From a virus, in IMG/VR virus record IMGVR_UViG_3300021197_000025, positions 1 to 25,738 of that record: a DNA stretch of 25,738 nt. One strand, 5' to 3'. The notes beneath the pieces are model-generated. The model had not been told where the DNA came from and searched no databases. It saw only the letters and a program-made list of their open reading frames with translations. Below, piece after piece: positions 105 through 13,986 of the stretch (the stretch's first letter is position 1; each line of letters begins with the position of its first letter). The translations under genes and the position numbers were made by a program.

Positions 105-250
105 ATAAATCGCTAGGTTCCTTCCAATATCGGGTCAAAAACCGCAGAAAACCGCCAAAAATCCGAGATTTTCGCGCCGCCGCCCGCGCCGTGCCTAGCG
201 GGAGCATGGGCCATGTTTCTCTCAAATATTCATGTGAAAAACGGTATAGA

Positions 251-268
251 ATGTTTCACGTGAAACAT
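251..268. promoter_or_regulatory. parS: parS-like ParB-binding site
   Basis: Positions 252-267 read TGTTTCACGTGAAACA, a perfect 16-base palindrome; with the flanking A and T it is a perfect 18-base palindrome. This matches the consensus of chromosomal parS sites bound by ParB/Spo0J proteins across bacteria, including Alphaproteobacteria. Chance occurrence of this exact 16-mer in a 25.7 kb window is about 6 in a million for uniform base use. No parA or parB gene is visible in the window, so a host ParB would be the expected binder. It sits about 95 bases before the terminase start. The motif identity is certain; the function in this phage is inferred. Confidence 0.85.
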
Positions 269-286
269 TGCCTATTTATTAGGCAA
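268..286. other. 7-base inverted repeat after parS
   Basis: TTGCCTA (268-274) and TAGGCAA (280-286) form a perfect 7-base stem around a 5-base loop, directly abutting the parS-like palindrome. It lacks a following T-tract, so it does not look like an intrinsic terminator. It could be an operator, or a structural element of the same nucleoprotein site. Confidence 0.5.
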
Positions 287-296
287 ATATGAAGTC

Positions 297-334
297 TTGT
301 TAACTGACTAATAAATGTGCATATTTATGCACAT
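297..334 (+). promoter_or_regulatory. Possible promoter with operator-like inverted repeat
   Basis: ATGTGCAT (315-322) and ATGCACAT (327-334) form a perfect 8-base inverted repeat with a 4-base spacer, in AT-rich DNA 26 bases before the terminase start. A related half-site (TGTGCAAT) follows at 339-346. A weak sigma70-like pair, TTGTTA (297-302) and CATATT (320-325), has a 17-base spacer and would place the -10 inside the inverted repeat, as expected for repression. The inverted repeat is seen directly. The promoter matches only 4 of 6 bases in each box and is tentative. Confidence 0.35.
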
Positions 335-360
335 ATTTTGTGCAATTTAAGGGTCCCCCG

Positions 361-1806
361 ATGGATGTTTCTGATCAGGAGTTAAAGCTTCGCCTGCGAC
401 TCGCGCAAATCGAGAAGAATGAAGCTTGCAGAGAGACGTTTTTACCTTTTGTAAAATCTATGTGGCCGGAGTTTATTGCTGGTCGGCATCATAAAATCAT
501 TGCTGACAAGTTAGAGCGGGTAGCAAAGGGCGAGTTAAAGCGTTTAATTATTAACATGGCCCCTAGACACACGAAGTCAGAGTTTGCATCCTTCTTGTTT
601 CCGGCTTGGATGATGGGCAAAAACCCGCGAATGAAGATCATTCAGGCCACGCACACAACAGAGCTTGCGGTTAACTTTGGCCGTAAGACAAAAAATCTTT
701 TAGACAGTGACGAGTACAGAGAGGTATTTCCGGATGTTAAACTGGCTTCTGATAGTAAAGCTTCTGGTCGTTGGGACACTGCTGCTGGGGGGATGTACTA
801 TGCCGTCGGCGTGGGATCGAACCTTGCCGGGCGTGGTGGTGACTTGGTAATCATTGATGATCCGCATTCGGAGCAGACAGCGATGTCCGCGAACGGATTT
901 GACGATGCGTGGGATTGGTACACAGGGGGCCCCCGGCAGAGGCTCCAGCCGGGTGGGTCGATTGTTTTGGTACAGACCCGGTGGTCTGAGAAGGATATGA
1001 CGGGTCAGCTTTTGAGGGCGATGGCTAAAGATCCGTTAGCAGATCAGTGGGAAGTTGTGGAGCTTCCTGCTATTTTTGAGGATGAGACGCCGTGTTGGCC
1101 GGAGTTTTGGTCTTTGGAAGATTTGACCGCGGTCAAAGCATCTATTCCGCCGGGCAAGTGGAATGCTCAGTATCAGCAGAATCCGACGGGTGAAGAGAAC
1201 GCGATTATACCTCGTGAGTGGTGGAACAGGTGGGAGAAGGACAACATTCCCAACTTGGAGTATGTCATTCAGAGTTATGATACGGCGTTTAGTAAGCGCG
1301 AGACGGCTGACTATTCTGCCATTACAACGTGGGGTGTGTTTCGTCCAGAGGAGGTTGGGGGCCCTCCGGCACTCATACTTTTGGATAGTAAGAAGGACAG
1401 GTGGGATTTTCCGGAATTAAAGAAGGAGGCTTTGGAGCAATATCATTACTGGGAGCCTGATACGGTAATTGTTGAGGCGAAGGCTTCTGGCTTGCCGTTG
1501 ACGCAGGAATTAAGGAACATGGGTATTCCAGTTGTTAACTTTACGCCGAGCAAGGGAAATGATAAGCTAACGCGAGTTCACTCTGTATCGCCTCTTTTTG
1601 AGTCTGGTATGGTTTGGGCCCCCGACACCGTCTTTGCTGATGAGATGATAGAGGAGGTGGCGGCATTTCCAAACGGGGAGCACGACGATTTGGTTGACAG
1701 CATGACACAGGCATTGATGCGTTACCGTCAGGGTAATTTTGTTCAGTTGCCTAGTGATGACTGGGATGAGTCGGATGGCAACGTACAAGTTAGGGCTTAT
1801 TATTGA
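361..1806 (+). CDS. terL: Terminase large subunit
   Basis: This is the ATP-driven motor and nuclease that packages DNA through the portal into the procapsid. The 481-residue product shows the expected two-domain plan. The N-terminal ATPase has a Walker A-like P-loop APRHTKS at about residues 67-73 and a Walker B segment LVIIDDPH at 162-169. The C-terminal RNase H-like nuclease has acidic residues at D307 (SYDTAFSK), E372 (VEAKAS) and D442/D443/D446 (HDDLVD). An in-frame GTG at 340 could extend it by 7 residues, but ATG 361 has an AAGGG Shine-Dalgarno 7 bases upstream and is preferred. Length is normal for the family. The stop overlaps the next start (TGATG), so the genes are probably translationally coupled. 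No small terminase gene is recognised. Confidence 0.95.
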   Translation: MDVSDQELKLRLRLAQIEKNEACRETFLPFVKSMWPEFIAGRHHKIIADKLERVAKGELKRLIINMAPRHTKSEFASFLFPAWMMGKNPRMKIIQATHTTELAVNFGRKTKNLLDSDEYREVFPDVKLASDSKASGRWDTAAGGMYYAVGVGSNLAGRGGDLVIIDDPHSEQTAMSANGFDDAWDWYTGGPRQRLQPGGSIVLVQTRWSEKDMTGQLLRAMAKDPLADQWEVVELPAIFEDETPCWPEFWSLEDLTAVKASIPPGKWNAQYQQNPTGEENAIIPREWWNRWEKDNIPNLEYVIQSYDTAFSKRETADYSAITTWGVFRPEEVGGPPALILLDSKKDRWDFPELKKEALEQYHYWEPDTVIVEAKASGLPLTQELRNMGIPVVNFTPSKGNDKLTRVHSVSPLFESGMVWAPDTVFADEMIEEVAAFPNGEHDDLVDSMTQALMRYRQGNFVQLPSDDWDESDGNVQVRAYY

Positions 1807-8811: not shown

Positions 8812-9009
8812 GTGGATGAAATATATATAGCGGAGGCCGTTTTTCGTATTATTCGGGACCGCCGTCAGGGTGTTCAAGACATTGTACTTTATGACAACGT
8901 GTCGAACATGGAGCAGTATCGTGAGCTCATGGGTAATTTAAAAGCCTTAGATCACGTGGAACAGGAACTCAAGGGCCTGCTAGATAAACAGGAGCACAGC
9001 AATGACTGA
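8812..9009 (+). CDS. Small acidic helical protein of unknown function
   Basis: A 65-residue protein from GTG 8812; GGAG at 8800-8803 sets this start 8 bases downstream, and no in-frame ATG is nearby. It is predicted to be helical and charged (YRELMGNLKALDHVEQELKG), with no membrane segment. It overlaps the co-chaperonin start by 8 bases. The place at the head of the capsid operon suggests a role in head assembly or co-chaperonin function, but no family is recognised. Confidence 0.65.
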   Translation: MDEIYIAEAVFRIIRDRRQGVQDIVLYDNVSNMEQYRELMGNLKALDHVEQELKGLLDKQEHSND

Positions 9010-9451
9010 TGTACAAGTAAACCTTGCGGACGTGGCAGAGGGTGTTGGAAAACTTTCTGAGGCGTACAAGGATGTTACCGATAAAGCACTAGACCCCGAA
9101 AAGATTGGCGGGTCTCTCCTAGAACGGATGCCGCAGCCTACGGGTTGGCGTCTTCTTATCTTGCCGTATCGTGGCAAAGGGAAAACTGACGGTGGGATAT
9201 ACCTTCCTAACGCAGTGGTTGAGGAGCAAACAGTATCTACACAGGTTGGCTATGTCCTAAAAGTAGGTCCTCTGGCGTATAAGGACGCGGAAAAGTTTCC
9301 GTCCGGTCCGTGGTGTGAGCAGGGTAATTGGGTGATGTTTGCCCGTTATGCTGGCTCTCGTTTCAAGATTGATGGCGGGGAGGTTCGCATTTTAAACGAT
9401 GACGAGATCTTGGCGTGTATTAATGAACCTGAAGATATTTTGCATTTCTAG
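9002..9451 (+). CDS. GroES-like co-chaperonin
   Basis: This caps host GroEL to fold proteins; phage versions such as T4 gp31 enlarge the chamber for capsid protein. The 149-residue product has a GroES fold from about residue 44. It shows a first strand GWRLLILPY (48-56), a mobile loop ending GGIYLPN (64-70) with the hydrophobic IYL that docks on GroEL, GYVLKVGP (83-90), GNWVMFARYAG (108-118) and a final VRILNDDEILA (128-138). It is longer than GroES (97 residues) because of a 45-residue N-terminal extension and an insertion around 91-107. AGGAG at 8990-8994 supports ATG 9002. It lies directly before scaffold and capsid genes, consistent with capsid folding. Confidence 0.88.
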   Translation: MTDVQVNLADVAEGVGKLSEAYKDVTDKALDPEKIGGSLLERMPQPTGWRLLILPYRGKGKTDGGIYLPNAVVEEQTVSTQVGYVLKVGPLAYKDAEKFPSGPWCEQGNWVMFARYAGSRFKIDGGEVRILNDDEILACINEPEDILHF

Positions 9452-9460
9452 GAGTAAATA

Positions 9461-10339
9461 ATGGCGAAAGAAAAAATAGCAGAAGACCAGATTGAACTTG
9501 ATTTGGACGAAAGCTCTGAAGAAGAGGTGGAGATCGAAGCGCGGGATGAGGCGCAAGACGACGCGCAGGAGGTCGCCTCAAGCGATGATAATTTTGACCG
9601 AGCGGACAATGCTACGCAAAAACGGATTGACCGTTTAACCAAAAAAATGCGCGAAGCAGAGCGTCAGCGCGAAGAAGCGTTAAAGTTTGCTCAAGGTGTG
9701 CAGGCCGAGTCTCAGAATTTAAAAACCCGCATGGATGCTTTGGACACTAATTATGTTAATGAGTATAGTAACCGTGTAGAGACGCAAACTACCGCGGCAG
9801 AGCAGGATCTAGCTCGTGCAATAGAGATCGGTGATACGAATGGCGTGATTGAAGCGCAACGCAAGATCACACGTTTGGCTATTGAAAACGACCGGGCTCA
9901 AACCGCAAAGATGCAGCAGCAACGCTATGCTCAGCAGGTTCAAGCGCAGGAGCAGGCGCGGGTACAGCAGCCCATGCCTCAGCAGCAGCCTCGTAGGCCC
10001 GACCCAAAAGCTGAAAAATGGGCTCAAAGAAATAGCTGGTTTGGTGATGATGAGGCTATGACTTATGCTGCTTTTGGTGTACATAAGAAATTAGTTGAAG
10101 ACGAAGGGTTTGACCCGCAGTCGGAAGACTACTATACTGAACTAGATAATCGTATGCGGGAAGAGTTTCCGCATAAGTTAAACGGTGGAAGTAAACGGCC
10201 CGCTCAGACTGTTGCTTCTGTATCCCGCAGTTCTGGGCGCAGTAGTGGGAAAAAGGTTAGACTCACCCCTAGCCAAGTCGCAATAGCGAAGAAATTGGGT
10301 GTGCCGCTTGAAGAATACGCGAAATACGTGAAGGAGTAA
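9461..10339 (+). CDS. Capsid scaffolding protein
   Basis: The scaffold guides assembly of capsid protein into a procapsid and is then removed. The 292-residue product shows the usual low-complexity design: very acidic N-terminus (1-50), long coiled-coil centre (53-175), a Q-rich run (about 155-178), a short ordered RNSWFGDDEAMTYAAF segment and a basic C-terminus (about 255-292, GKKVRLTPSQVAIAKKLG) suited to binding the capsid shell. AGGAG at 9450-9454 precedes the start. No protease motif is visible. Called from composition and its place between co-chaperonin and capsid genes. Confidence 0.8.
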   Translation: MAKEKIAEDQIELDLDESSEEEVEIEARDEAQDDAQEVASSDDNFDRADNATQKRIDRLTKKMREAERQREEALKFAQGVQAESQNLKTRMDALDTNYVNEYSNRVETQTTAAEQDLARAIEIGDTNGVIEAQRKITRLAIENDRAQTAKMQQQRYAQQVQAQEQARVQQPMPQQQPRRPDPKAEKWAQRNSWFGDDEAMTYAAFGVHKKLVEDEGFDPQSEDYYTELDNRMREEFPHKLNGGSKRPAQTVASVSRSSGRSSGKKVRLTPSQVAIAKKLGVPLEEYAKYVKE

Positions 10340-10344
10340 GTTAA

Positions 10345-10833
10345 ATGTCTGAAGAACAGAACGAAATGTTTGAAGGTACAGTAAAACGTACTGCTCGCGC
10401 TAACCAAACTAGGGAAAAGACGGCGCAGCGTAAGCCGTGGGCTCCCCCGTCTATGTTGGATGCACCGCCTGCACCGGATGGTTTTAAGCATCGTTGGATC
10501 CGGGCTGAAACCCGTGGTTTTGACGATACTAAGAACATCAGCGCAAAAATGCGCGAAGGTTATGAGCTTGTTCGTAAGGACGAGTACCCAGACTTTGAGG
10601 CCCCGGTAGTCGAATCAGGTAAATATGAAGGTGTGTTTGGAGTAGGTGGACTTATTCTCGCACGGATTCCATTGGAAACAGTGGCAGAACGGACTCAGTA
10701 TTTTTCTCAGAGAAATACCGACCAGATGCAGGCTGTTGACTCTGACATGATGCGTGAGAATGCACATTCAACTATGACGATCAGTAAACCTGACCGTCAA
10801 TCTCGTGTAACCTTTGGCGGTCCACAGAAATAA
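10345..10833 (+). CDS. Head-associated protein of unknown function
   Basis: A 162-residue soluble protein between scaffold and capsid genes. Basic residues and a proline-rich stretch (KPWAPPSMLDAPPAPDG, about 31-47) come first, then a conserved-looking FKHRWIRAETRGFDDTKN segment typical of proteins at this locus in similar marine phages as I recall them, and a polar C-terminus. AAGGAG lies upstream of ATG 10345. It could be a second scaffold, a minor capsid protein or an assembly factor; sequence alone does not decide. Confidence 0.7.
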   Translation: MSEEQNEMFEGTVKRTARANQTREKTAQRKPWAPPSMLDAPPAPDGFKHRWIRAETRGFDDTKNISAKMREGYELVRKDEYPDFEAPVVESGKYEGVFGVGGLILARIPLETVAERTQYFSQRNTDQMQAVDSDMMRENAHSTMTISKPDRQSRVTFGGPQK

Positions 10834-10867
10834 TTCAAAGGGCCGCCCTGATTAGGAGAAAAATCAA

Positions 10868-11515
10868 ATGGCAAATCAAGATACTGCCTTTGGCCTTCGT
10901 CCTATCGGGCTAAATGGCGCAGGTGCCAACACTACTGGCGTGACTCAATATGAGATCGCATCCAACAATACAAATGCAATTTTTCAGTATTCACCGGTAA
11001 TTCCGTTGGCCGCTGGAGTGATTGATCTTGTTGGTAATGCCAATGGTGGTACGGTTCCTGCTCTAGGCGTCCTGATGGGTGTTGAGTACGTAGATAGCTC
11101 TTCAAAAAAGACTGTCTTCAAAAACTACTGGCCCGGTTCTAACAGCGTAAGCGTTGATACGAACTTCCCAGTAAAAGCCTTTGTAGCTGACAACCCGAAC
11201 CAATTGTTCATGGTAGCCGCGGATACAACAACTACAGATAGAGCAACTGCTCTTGCTGATGTGTTTACCAACTGCTCTCTTGCAACAGCGACTTCTGGTT
11301 CAACTTCAACAGGTCGTTCCACTGCTGAACTAGACATTTCTACCGCAGCTAATACTGCAACACTCTTCATGCGTATTGTTGGTTTATCGCAAGATATAGC
11401 CAACCTAGATTACGCCTCTGCTGGTGTGAATTTTGTAGTTCGGTTTAACTTCCATCACAACGCGCCTGTGGCAGCTTCGGCTTCCCAGACAACGTCGTTG
11501 TCAACCGGCATTTAA
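10868..11515 (+). CDS. Putative head decoration or minor capsid protein
   Basis: A 215-residue protein rich in A, T, S, N and V, predicted mainly beta and without membrane segments. It starts MANQDTAFGLRPIGLNGAG, a start pattern I associate with phage capsid-surface or structural proteins in this position. Codon use leans to well-used codons like those of the capsid gene that follows. AGGAG precedes ATG 10868, and its stop overlaps the strong ribosome site of the capsid gene. An outer decoration role is an inference; a second capsid component is possible. Confidence 0.65.
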   Translation: MANQDTAFGLRPIGLNGAGANTTGVTQYEIASNNTNAIFQYSPVIPLAAGVIDLVGNANGGTVPALGVLMGVEYVDSSSKKTVFKNYWPGSNSVSVDTNFPVKAFVADNPNQLFMVAADTTTTDRATALADVFTNCSLATATSGSTSTGRSTAELDISTAANTATLFMRIVGLSQDIANLDYASAGVNFVVRFNFHHNAPVAASASQTTSLSTGI

Positions 11516-11529
11516 GGAGGGGATAGATA

Positions 11530-12435
11530 ATGGCTATTTCTCGCGCACAATTAGCGAAAGAGCTTGAGCCCGGACTAAATGCTTTGTTCGGACTGGAGTA
11601 CGACCGCTACGAAAATGAGCATGGTGAAATCTTTGAAGAAGAGTCATCAGATCGCGCATTTGAAGAAGAAGTGATGCTCGGTGGTTTCTCAACAGCACCA
11701 GTTAAAGGTGAGGGCGCTGCCATCAACTTTGACGATGCTCAGGAGACATACACCGCTCGTTACACACATGAGACGATTGCACTGGCGTTTTCAATCACTG
11801 AAGAAGCGATTGAGGATAACCTTTACGACCGTCTTGCGTCTCGTTACACAAAGGCATTGGCTCGTTCAATGGCTCAGACAAAGCAAATCAAGGCTGCTGC
11901 AATCCTGAACAATGCGTTCAGCACTGGTAGCCCTGTTGGTGATGGTGCAGCGCTTTGCTCCGCCGCTCACCCGTCTCTGTCTGGTAATCAACGCAACCTG
12001 CTGTCAACTGCGGCGGACCTCAATGAGACTTCTCTTGAGCAGATGTTGATTGACATTGCTGGTCTGACTGACGAGCGCGGCTTGAAGATTGCTGTACGTG
12101 GTACAAAGCTGATTATCCCGAAAGAACTGCAATTCATTGCAGAGCGGGTAATCAACTCAAACCTTCGTTCAGGAACAGCCGACAACGATGCGAACGCCAT
12201 GAAGAACATGGGTATGCTGCCAGAAGGTGCAGTGGTTAACCACTTCCTGACGGACACAGATGCCTTCTTCATCAAGACGGATGCACCGAACGGCTTCAAG
12301 TTCTTCAACCGTTCACCAATCAAGACTGCTATGGAAGGTGACTTTGACACTGGAAATATGCGGTTTAAGGCCCGTGAGCGTTACAGCTTCGGCGTTTCTG
12401 ATTGGCGTTGTGTGTTCGGTACACCGGGCGCATAA
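11530..12435 (+). CDS. Major capsid protein (HK97 fold, Mu gpT-like)
   Basis: The main shell protein, 301 residues. It has an N-terminal acidic helix (DRYENEHGEIFEEESSD), the ARYTHETIALAFSITEEAIEDN segment (start at about 76) typical of Mu gpT-like major head subunits, and a central spine-helix/A-domain region with LTDERGLKIAVRGTKLIIP (start at about 177). It ends in a FKARERYSFGVSDWRCVFG C-terminal strand region. AAGGAGG at 11514-11520, 9 bases before ATG 11530, is an ideal ribosome site and fits high output. A clear intrinsic terminator follows directly. Position after scaffold supports the call strongly. Confidence 0.9.
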   Translation: MAISRAQLAKELEPGLNALFGLEYDRYENEHGEIFEEESSDRAFEEEVMLGGFSTAPVKGEGAAINFDDAQETYTARYTHETIALAFSITEEAIEDNLYDRLASRYTKALARSMAQTKQIKAAAILNNAFSTGSPVGDGAALCSAAHPSLSGNQRNLLSTAADLNETSLEQMLIDIAGLTDERGLKIAVRGTKLIIPKELQFIAERVINSNLRSGTADNDANAMKNMGMLPEGAVVNHFLTDTDAFFIKTDAPNGFKFFNRSPIKTAMEGDFDTGNMRFKARERYSFGVSDWRCVFGTPGA

Positions 12436-12456
12436 GGTTCAAAACGGATTACAGAA

Positions 12457-12486
12457 AAGGGCGGCTTCACAGCCGTCCTTTTTTAT
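12457..12486 (+). terminator. Intrinsic terminator after capsid gene
   Basis: AAGGGCGGCT (12457-12466) pairs with AGCCGTCCTT (12471-12480) through a TCAC loop, with one G-U pair, followed by a run of T (six T including the end of the stem). It lies 20 bases after the capsid stop and is the only convincing Rho-independent terminator in the window. Confidence 0.85.
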
Positions 12487-12509
12487 TGTATAGTTTTCTA
12501 TATCCCTGA

Positions 12510-12526
12510 CAGCCCCTAATGGGCTG
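12510..12526 (+). other. Stem-loop in leader of next gene
   Basis: CAGCCC (12510-12515) and GGGCTG (12521-12526) form a perfect 6-base stem with a 5-base loop, without a T-tract, between the terminator and the gene at 12552. It could stabilise the 5' end of a transcript starting in the AT-rich stretch 12481-12503 (for instance at TATAGT near 12489). The promoter is only a guess. Confidence 0.35.
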
Positions 12527-12551
12527 ACACTAGCCACGACAGGAGAGACAA

Positions 12552-13013
12552 ATGGCTACAACTACTTTTTCTGGACCGATTAAGGCCGGAACTATCAAAA
12601 ATACCACGGGCACAGATCTTGGAACCAATATTGCGAATGTTGGTCAAGTTGTCATGGCTCAGACTTTTTCAGCAGACCTTTCTGGTGGCGCACTTGCCGC
12701 CCAAGTAACAGATGTTGTTATTCCTGCAAACTCTCAGATTATTGACTGCGTGATTGACATCATTACAGCCGCTAATGCTACAACTAACCTTAGTATCGGT
12801 GATACTGTAGGTGGTGCAGCTACAATCCTGAACACCTTTGCATCTGGAACCGACGCTGGGCGTAAGTACCCAACCACACAAGCTGGCGCTGCATTGGCTT
12901 GGCAAGACACTGGAACAGCAGACATCCGTTTGACTGTGACCGCTTCTGCCGCCACAAACGCAGGCCTTGTTCGTTTTACAATCCTGTATCAGCAAAACAA
13001 TAACCTAGCTTAG
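12552..13013 (+). CDS. Putative virion structural protein, beta-rich
   Basis: A 153-residue protein rich in T, A, G and V with alternating hydrophobic and polar residues, suggesting beta-sandwich folding (VVIPANSQIIDCVIDIITAANATT). No membrane segment or catalytic motif. AGGAGAG lies before ATG 12552. The position right after the capsid gene and the composition point to a head decoration or head-tail structural protein. The next gene resembles it in composition and they may act together. Confidence 0.6.
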   Translation: MATTTFSGPIKAGTIKNTTGTDLGTNIANVGQVVMAQTFSADLSGGALAAQVTDVVIPANSQIIDCVIDIITAANATTNLSIGDTVGGAATILNTFASGTDAGRKYPTTQAGAALAWQDTGTADIRLTVTASAATNAGLVRFTILYQQNNNLA

Positions 13014-13025
13014 TAGGAGGCTGTT

Positions 13026-13298
13026 ATGGCTGATTCTGATGTAAAATCAAAACGTGTGACCGCAACAGGTTCGCTTGCTGTAGGTCCTGCTCGGGTTCGT
13101 CAGATACAATTGAAAACAGCCGCAGGTACTCCTCGCCTTACCATCACTGATGGTACTGGTGGGGCTACTGTGCTTGATCTGGATTTCAACGAATCTACGA
13201 CGCATTCGGTTAATATCCCGTCGAACGGTATTCGTGTAGACGATATCTTTATATCTACTTTGACGAATATCACTGCCGTTACGGTGTTTTTTAATTGA
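13026..13298 (+). CDS. Small beta-rich structural protein
   Basis: A 90-residue protein with AGGAGG closely upstream of ATG 13026. It has repeated beta-type strands (VRQIQLKTAAGTPRLTITDG, IFISTLTNITAVTVFF), resembling the receptor or capsid-surface modules that display a small beta-sandwich. It is probably a virion component co-made with the gene at 12552. No specific family recognised. Confidence 0.6.
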   Translation: MADSDVKSKRVTATGSLAVGPARVRQIQLKTAAGTPRLTITDGTGGATVLDLDFNESTTHSVNIPSNGIRVDDIFISTLTNITAVTVFFN

Positions 13299-13306
13299 GG
13301 TAGGTT

Positions 13307-13594
13307 ATGGCTCCTCGTAAAGCTGCAATGCCTAAGAAAAACAAGAAAAATTTCCGCCCTACGGAAAAAGGGGCGGGAATGACTAAAGCTGGTGTTGCGG
13401 CATACAGACGCGCAAATCCCGGTTCTAAGTTAAAAACGGCTGTTACAGGCAAGGTGAAAAAGGGAAGTGCTGCGGCCAAACGCCGTTCTTCTTATTGTAG
13501 TAGGTCTAAAGGCCAGATGAAGATGCACAACATAAATTGTAAGAAAACGCCTAAAAAGCGTATTTGTGCCGCACGAAAAAGGTGGAAGTGTTAA
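13307..13594 (+). CDS. Lysine-rich cysteine-containing mini-protein (NPGSKLKTAVTG family)
   Basis: A 95-residue very basic protein. The core ANPGSKLKTAVTGKVKKGSA with the following AAKRRSSYCSRSKG (about 36-69) is a pattern I recognise as recurrent in marine phage genomes (possibly the family named DUF6321, from memory). The C-terminus has paired cysteines and ends RKRWKC. High charge and four cysteines suggest a nucleic-acid-binding or packaged virion protein, but no function is established to my knowledge. GAGGT precedes ATG 13307, and the stop overlaps the next start (TAATG). Confidence 0.75.
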   Translation: MAPRKAAMPKKNKKNFRPTEKGAGMTKAGVAAYRRANPGSKLKTAVTGKVKKGSAAAKRRSSYCSRSKGQMKMHNINCKKTPKKRICAARKRWKC

Positions 13595-13752
13595 TGAAAG
13601 CAGATGACGTCCTAAAACTTTTGGAAAAGCACGAGGAAGAGTGCAATGGCCGGTATGCTCAAATACAGAAACAGCTAGATAAGTTGGATCAAAGACTTTG
13701 GGGTATAGCGGGTTTAATCATTGCTGCGGCAGTCGTGCAGAAGGTGTTTTAA
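13594..13752 (+). CDS. Small one-pass membrane protein
   Basis: A 52-residue protein from ATG 13594 (overlapping the previous stop); the shorter start is chosen over an upstream in-frame start at 13564. An acidic, heptad-like helix (EEECNGRYAQIQKQLDKLDQRL) is followed by one C-terminal membrane segment (WGIAGLIIAAAVVQKVF). The outline resembles XhlA-like holin helpers and other phage micro-membrane proteins. Involvement in lysis or entry is possible but unproven. Stop and next start abut (TAAATG). Confidence 0.65.
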   Translation: MKADDVLKLLEKHEEECNGRYAQIQKQLDKLDQRLWGIAGLIIAAAVVQKVF

Positions 13753-13986
13753 ATGACCAGTGCAGTTAGATTAGGGGCCGGGGCCTGTCCTAGTCCTAGA
13801 CGATCCTCTAAAGGCGTTGTTCGCATGAAAAAGGGGGGTGAGGTAAAAAGTGGTGGTAAGATCTGTCCCAAAGGGAAAGCGTGGGCCAAACGCACATTTG
13901 ACACATACCCGTCAGCGTATGCAAACATGGCAGCCTCAAAGTACTGTAAGGACCCCAACTATGCTAAAAAATCAAAGGGCAAGTAA
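13753..13986 (+). CDS. Basic mini-protein, WAKRTFDTYPSAYAN family
   Basis: A 77-residue lysine-rich protein starting immediately after the upstream stop. An N-terminal MKKGGEV motif (25-31) precedes the block ICPKGKAWAKRTFDTYPSAY and its continuation ANMAASKYCKDPNYAKK (37-73). I recognise this as a widespread small family in marine phages. The function is unknown to me. Three cysteines and high positive charge suggest nucleic-acid contact or packaging in the virion. Its stop overlaps the next start (TAATG). Confidence 0.75.
   Translation: MTSAVRLGAGACPSPRRSSKGVVRMKKGGEVKSGGKICPKGKAWAKRTFDTYPSAYANMAASKYCKDPNYAKKSKGK

What the first reader, a model, noticed from the sequence alone, without database searches (positions are those of the whole stretch)
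251..268. Exact parS site in a phage, next to the terminase gene
TGTTTCACGTGAAACA is the canonical chromosomal partition site and is found as a perfect 18-base palindrome with flanks. One exact 16-mer hit by chance in this window is about 6 in a million. There is no parA or parB in view, so the phage may recruit the host ParB clamp. Hypotheses: to segregate or localise the phage genome as an extrachromosomal element, to bring DNA to the packaging or replication site, or to act as a regulator of the terminase promoter or as a decoy for host ParB. A partition-hijacking site without its own partition genes would be unusual.
Basis: partly seen in the sequence, partly recalled or inferred. Interest (0 to 1): 0.85.

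Follow-up and report, generated by a model that had tools for sequence, protein, structure and literature searches.

The report
Orphan host-type parS in marine phages
A family of marine viruses of bacteria carries, just before its DNA-packaging gene, a perfect copy of the DNA tag that bacteria use to sort their own chromosomes; the tag has stayed unchanged while the DNA around it drifted, yet none of these viruses was found to encode the protein that reads it, so they probably borrow the host's.

Summary
TGTTTCACGTGAAACA lies at 252-267, about 93 bp before the likely terL start. It is not chance or chimera: 62 of 98 terL leaders compared (window included) carry the exact 16-mer, and two more have one mismatch. 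In 51 distinct contexts, 14 of 16 columns are invariant and two are 98%, while adjacent columns are 73-75% and terL four-fold sites average 45% identity. It is not coding: it sits in all three frames relative to a conserved upstream small ORF. It has been lost cleanly, gained or relocated within the same leader, and replaced by TGTTCCACGTGGAACA, which is built from ParB's other preferred half-site. No ParB or ParA passed cut-off in relatives up to 58 kb. The motif recurs in at least 120 IMG/VR stretches and 262 phage records; one scrambled control gave none in IMG/VR and two gave none in phages. 96 of 100 carriers tested lack ParB. Best reading: a host-ParB loading site under strong selection. 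Its benefit (partition or positioning, condensin loading, or terminase control) is undecided. No held paper describes it.

The parts
252..267 (.). parS-type palindrome TGTTTCACGTGAAACA, probable host-ParB nucleation site
   Evidence: Exact match; 14/16 columns invariant in 51 non-redundant contexts; scrambled control palindromes give no hits in collections
213..263 (+). Conserved small upstream ORF start (MFLSNIHVKNGIECFT in the window; MFxxNxxVKN in relatives), overlapping parS; parS falls in frames 0, 1 and 2 relative to it in different relatives
   Evidence: may be a leader peptide or a conserved DNA element, not tested
268..286 (.). Inverted repeat TTGCCTATTTATTAGGCAA directly after parS; common companion but absent in L062/L063 and imperfect in others
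299..304 (.). GTTAAC landmark of a conserved TTGTTAACTG...GCATATT element, a possible promoter (no consensus sigma-70 match); distance from parS 9-76 nt in relatives
315..334 (.). Second inverted repeat ATGTGCATATTTATGCACAT in the leader
361..1806 (+). terL, terminase large subunit (probable start ATG361; mechanical ORF starts at GTG340)
   Evidence: PHROG 38, E 6e-110; start inferred from relatives

Best explanation
The palindrome is a functional parS: a loading site for the host's chromosomal ParB. Inferred mechanism: after DNA entry, host ParB dimers recognise the two GTTTCAC half-sites, bind CTP, close into clamps and slide over the neighbouring kilobases of phage DNA, so that the phage genome is treated like an origin region. 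The most likely benefit is that ParA (and possibly the SMC condensin recruited by ParB) then positions, compacts or separates the intracellular phage genomes, without the phage paying for its own parAB. Shown here: sequence identity to parS, strong purifying selection on the exact 16-mer, repeated gain, loss and relocation, replacement by the other ParB-preferred form, and absence of detectable ParA/ParB genes. Inferred: binding by host ParB, spreading, and the benefit.
For: Exact parS in 62 of 98 terL leaders compared, plus two with one mismatch. 14/16 columns invariant in 51 distinct contexts, against 73-75% for adjacent columns and 45% mean identity at terL four-fold sites. On the main terL tree the character needs 6 changes versus 26 for shuffled labels. 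Clean deletions in L026/L036/L037/L041, and different positions in the homologous leader in L109, L162, L172, L176, L198, L066, L072, L076. L394 has TGTTCCACGTGGAACA where its relative L109 has TGTTTCACGTGAAACA, and L176 and L462 have both forms side by side; GTTCCAC and GTTTCAC are the two half-sites preferred by P. aeruginosa ParB (PMC10419367). No ParB_N or ParA-type domain in relatives including near-full-length ones; HTH_ParB only one sub-threshold match. The motif recurs in unrelated phages of Listeria, Lactobacillus, Enterococcus, Gordonia, Microbacterium, Arthrobacter, Ruegeria and in Inoviridae; the eight such genomes tested for ParB have none. 96 of 100 IMG/VR carriers lack ParB_N. 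Their common denominator is a host with chromosomal ParB (host content: general knowledge).
Against: No binding data. The hosts of this clade are unknown: the MAG bins that hold relatives (Verrucomicrobia, Maricaulis) are unreliable, and the Verrucomicrobiales MAG has parS only on the phage contig. One site per genome is few. The cultured pelagiphage HTVC023P, Roseobacter phages CRP-901/902/810 and whole sister clades lack the site, and HTVC027P has only a one-mismatch coding look-alike, so it is dispensable. Partition should work from any position, yet sites cluster near terL. These sequences were mostly reached through terL queries, which biases that view, although the unbiased motif scan also gives many terL-proximal sites.
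Confidence: 0.72

Rival explanations
1. ParB loaded at this parS acts mainly as a local regulator of the terminase operon: clamps spreading into the terL (or terS-terL) promoter repress or time late transcription.
For: The site sits between the leader ORF and terL in nearly all carriers. In the L045-type phages, where a terS-like gene precedes terL, it lies upstream of the pair. ParB spreading can silence genes near parS, as in P1 (reviewed in PMC7333895).
Against: Spacing to the next conserved element varies 9-76 nt, and in sister clades the site is on the other side of that element, 14-70 nt from the terL match start. Mutating 25 half-parS sites in P. aeruginosa had no dominant effect on local transcription (PMC10419367). 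Many other phages carry the site far from terL.
Confidence: 0.22
2. Replicating phage copies titrate ParB (a decoy), disturbing host chromosome segregation as part of host takeover.
For: Each genome copy brings a perfect-consensus site; some other phages carry arrays (six in a 6-kb inovirus; five in L097 and L124; eleven of a variant form in L166).
Against: One site per 55-60 kb genome in this clade is a weak sponge. No pressure for extra copies is seen in most relatives.
Confidence: 0.1
3. The palindrome is read by a phage-encoded DNA-binding protein with the same specificity by coincidence, or it acts as an RNA hairpin.
For: The leader folds strongly as RNA, z about -4.8. The phages encode unannotated small proteins.
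Against: No ParB_N and no above-threshold HTH_ParB. The same 16-mer recurs in unrelated phages. The central ACGT, which would be an RNA loop, is near-invariant, and the two single-base variants leave the pairing uncompensated.
Confidence: 0.08
4. Protein-coding constraint in the overlapping small ORF (VSRET, CFT or MFHVKH) keeps the sequence.
For: A conserved small ORF runs into parS. In HTVC027P-type phages a near-parS string encodes an AFHVKH stretch and is a coding coincidence.
Against: parS is in all three frames relative to the ORF, and its synonymous positions hardly ever vary although terL four-fold sites average 45% identity.
Confidence: 0.02

Closest known systems
Chromosomal parS of bacterial ParABS systems
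   Same: Identical 16-bp palindrome; also the TGTTCCACGTGGAACA form made of the other ParB-preferred half-site (PMC10419367)
   Different: Located on a phage genome, singly, without parAB and without a bacterial origin
Partition modules of extrachromosomal phages (P1, N15; mycobacteriophage RedRock and other cluster A phages)
   Same: Phage DNA with a centromere-like site
   Different: Those phages encode their own ParA and ParB; the RedRock parS loci are eight 8-bp direct repeats (PMC7157519); here no partition gene was found and the site is the host's own consensus
HTVC023P-type podoviruses (Pelagibacter phages HTVC023P, HTVC027P; related phage DSL-LC04)
   Same: Homologous terL (54-62%) and capsid (70-73%), similar gene order with GroES
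   Different: These sequenced relatives lack an exact parS; the window clade is a higher-GC, parS-bearing branch with unknown hosts
Phages that use host factor sites in cis (for example dif sites of XerCD-using inoviruses, Chi, IHF sites; from general knowledge)
   Same: A host-recognised DNA motif placed on phage DNA without the cognate protein
   Different: Here the host factor would be the chromosome-partition clamp ParB

Membership tests
parS site (ParB nucleation site) | 16-bp palindrome matching the parS consensus | tested here: met
   0 mismatches at 252-267
parS site (ParB nucleation site) | Maintained by selection as a DNA site | tested here: met
   14/16 columns invariant over 51 contexts, flanks and synonymous sites diverged; all three frames
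parS site (ParB nucleation site) | Bound by ParB, with CTP-dependent spreading | not testable with these tools
   Needs in vitro loading or ChIP
Phage-encoded parABS partition module | ParB gene on the same genome | tested here: not met
   PF02195: 0 of 17 records; PF17762: none above cut-off in 13, one sub-threshold 84-aa match in G010
Phage-encoded parABS partition module | ParA-type ATPase gene on the same genome | tested here: not met
   PF13614: 0 of 13 records
HTVC023P-type podoviruses | Homologous terminase, portal and capsid set with GroES | tested here: met
   terL and capsid tblastn; PHROG hits for terL, portal, GroES and capsid in the window; portal homology to HTVC phages not tested directly
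HTVC023P-type podoviruses | Pelagibacter host | not testable with these tools
   No reliable host link found

The most novel reading that the evidence does not exclude
Hijacking of the host chromosome-partition clamp by an orphan parS is a widespread, repeatedly evolved phage strategy across tailed phages, inoviruses and others infecting ParB-bearing bacteria: a single palindrome, or an array of them, places the viral genome inside the host's ParABS/SMC machinery.
Probability: 0.55. Interest if true: 0.88.

Novelty: new variant of a known kind. Interest (0 to 1): 0.8.

Why it matters
ParABS is the main chromosome segregation system of bacteria. If phages without parAB keep perfect parS sites, then ParB becomes a host factor in infection: it could place, segregate or compact viral DNA, or time terminase expression. 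This makes the question of where phage DNA sits in the cell testable with a 16-bp mutation. It also predicts that phages of hosts lacking chromosomal ParB should lack the motif, and it gives a sequence marker of host ParB dependence for uncultured viruses.

Tried and rejected
Near-parS CGTTTCACGTGAAACA in HTVC027P and relatives: rejected as parS, it is part of a protein-coding AFHVKH stretch and drifts at codon positions. Host assignment from MAG bins: inconclusive; no tRNA genes in the 51-58 kb relatives. Contig ends upstream of parS as a sign of a physical genome end: contig starts are spread widely and G003 and G009 run through the region, so not pursued. RNA hairpin or terminator role: hairpins fold but sequence invariance including the loop argues against. 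No consensus sigma-70 promoter was found. Rfam finds nothing in the leader. PF03237 terminase near parS in the wider set: mixed, detected in 13 of 50. A structure prediction was not useful for a DNA site.

Full report
Observation. The window is a 25,738-base virus record carrying terL, portal, GroES, major capsid and tail genes. The exact palindrome TGTTTCACGTGAAACA is at 252-267, in the leader of terL, 93 bp before ATG361. I prefer ATG361 to the mechanical GTG340 because ATG361 and the AGGGnCCCC string before it are conserved in relatives. There is one site in the window and one in each parS-bearing record searched whole.

Who the phage is. TerL and capsid place it near the HTVC023P-type podoviruses: terL 62% to Pelagibacter phage HTVC027P, 58% to phage DSL-LC04 and 54% to HTVC023P; capsid 70-73% to the same set. 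Gene order with GroES is similar. There is no close nucleotide match among cultured phages. Window G+C is 47%, against 36% for the held part of HTVC027P. The host is not known. Relatives occur in Verrucomicrobia, Maricaulis and Legionellales MAG bins, but the Verrucomicrobiales bin has parS only on the phage contig, so these bins are not trusted.

Conservation. Of 80 terL relatives from IMG/VR, most carry the exact 16-mer upstream of terL, usually within about 140 bp. A search from a sister clade gave none in L299-L354 but exact sites in L355-L359, L361 and L362. HTVC027P-type relatives have no exact site. Of the 98 leaders classified for the tree (window included), 62 have the exact site, 2 have one mismatch, 33 have none within the searched leader and one could not be classified (one of the 33, L072, does carry it at -14). 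On the terL tree the site needs 6 changes against a shuffled mean of 26: it is old in the window's clade, with a few losses (L026/L036/L037/L040/L041, L042, L054) and a separate gain in L076. In 51 non-redundant contexts, 14 of the 16 columns are 100% and two are 98%, while the columns on either side are 73% and 75%; terL four-fold sites among carriers average 45% identity. Some upstream blocks are also well conserved (96-98%), so the leader holds other elements, but no other block is as invariant.

Not coding, not RNA. A small ORF (MFxxNxxVKN...) starts 37, 38 or 39 nt before parS, so the palindrome is read in all three frames in different relatives. The leader folds well as RNA, but the central ACGT, a loop in that fold, is near-invariant, and the two single-base variants are uncompensated. 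The one coordinated change seen is TGTTTCACGTGAAACA to TGTTCCACGTGGAACA at the matching place in L394 versus L109. GTTCCAC and GTTTCAC are the two half-sites most preferred by P. aeruginosa ParB (PMC10419367). L176 and L462 carry both forms side by side.

Position. The spacing from parS to the GTTAAC landmark is 31-33 nt in most carriers but 9 in L062/L063 and 76 in L027/L028/L030. In L109, L176, L198, L162, L172, L066 and L072 the site lies downstream of the equivalent element, immediately before the terL start. In L045-type phages a terS-like gene lies between parS and terL. Relocation within one homologous leader argues that presence near the terminase genes is selected, not a fixed promoter geometry.

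No partition genes. PF02195 (ParB_N) gives 0 of 17 records including 51-58 kb ones; PF17762 (HTH_ParB) gives none above cut-off, with one weak match in an 84-aa frame of G010; PF13614 (ParA type) gives 0 of 13. Controls rang as expected. Pfam scans of the early region of two relatives found replication, nuclease and terminase genes, not partition genes. The long records are not certified complete.

Generality. The BLAST version gave 262 phage records against none for two scrambled controls. In the fetched IMG/VR set, 53% of sites are intergenic against 15% of random positions, and 17 of 118 loci have several sites. 96 of 100 carriers tested lack ParB_N; many of these records are fragments. Named phages with exact sites and no ParB_N include an inovirus with six sites in 6.2 kb, Ruegeria phages DSS3_MAL1 and RpAliso, Gordonia phage Hail2Pitt, Lactobacillus phage Lpa804, Arthrobacter phage Mimi, Glutamicibacter phage Voltaire and Enterococcus phage CUB-FM. 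An unrelated marine group (L097, L124) has five sites in the gene-poor stretch upstream of a terL that is only about 29% identical.

Interpretation. Unrelated phages with different hosts share this motif and share no detectable reader of their own; the common reader is the host ParB. I therefore hold that it is a functional parS read by host ParB (about 0.8), with partition, positioning or compaction of phage DNA through ParA/SMC as the most likely benefit, local control of the terminase operon second, titration third. The benefit is inference. Sister clades and cultured pelagiphages do without it, so it is an adaptation to certain hosts or lifestyles.

Literature. Searches of the open-access library found phage-encoded parABS systems (PMC7157519) and ParB-like proteins in phages (PMC4351075, PMC12704722) but no report of orphan parS in phages. 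Subscription papers and preprints were not searchable, so priority is not certain.

Noticed in passing
L386 (PQ006097.1, bajarodino virus 3), sites at 704, 740, 3041, 3583, 4380, 5921: An inovirus of 6.2 kb with six exact parS sites and no ParB_N: a filamentous phage array that deserves its own study.
   Followed up: partly
L166 (IMG/VR 3300037518_000322), 8907-13877: Eleven copies of the asymmetric form GTTTCACGTGGAAC (mostly within TGTTTCACGTGGAACA) in 5 kb of a 116-kb viral contig, plus an exact parS; no ParB_N found in the record.
   Followed up: partly
L097 and L124: Unrelated marine phage group with five exact parS each, upstream of a very different terL.
   Followed up: partly
window 213-263 and homologous leaders: Conserved small ORF start MFxxNxxVKN upstream of terL, present also in many phages without parS; possible leader peptide, or a DNA element with GTTTCTC and GTGAAAAA half-site-like ends.
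   Followed up: partly
window 349-361 and relatives: AGGGGCCCC / AGGGTCCCC strings directly before the terL start and repeated elsewhere upstream in several relatives; function unknown.
   Followed up: no
G003 28841-29047 (L379): A parS-bearing relative encodes a small protein with the DnaA C-terminal DNA-binding domain (E 2.8e-14), not seen in ten related records.
   Followed up: partly
window 12504-12554: Rfam Mu-gpT-DE RNA (RF03012, 58.4 bits) just downstream of the major capsid gene.
   Followed up: no
L207 15915-15930 and HTVC027P-type relatives: One-mismatch parS inside a protein-coding AFHVKH stretch: a warning that near-parS strings in coding DNA can be coincidence.
   Followed up: yes
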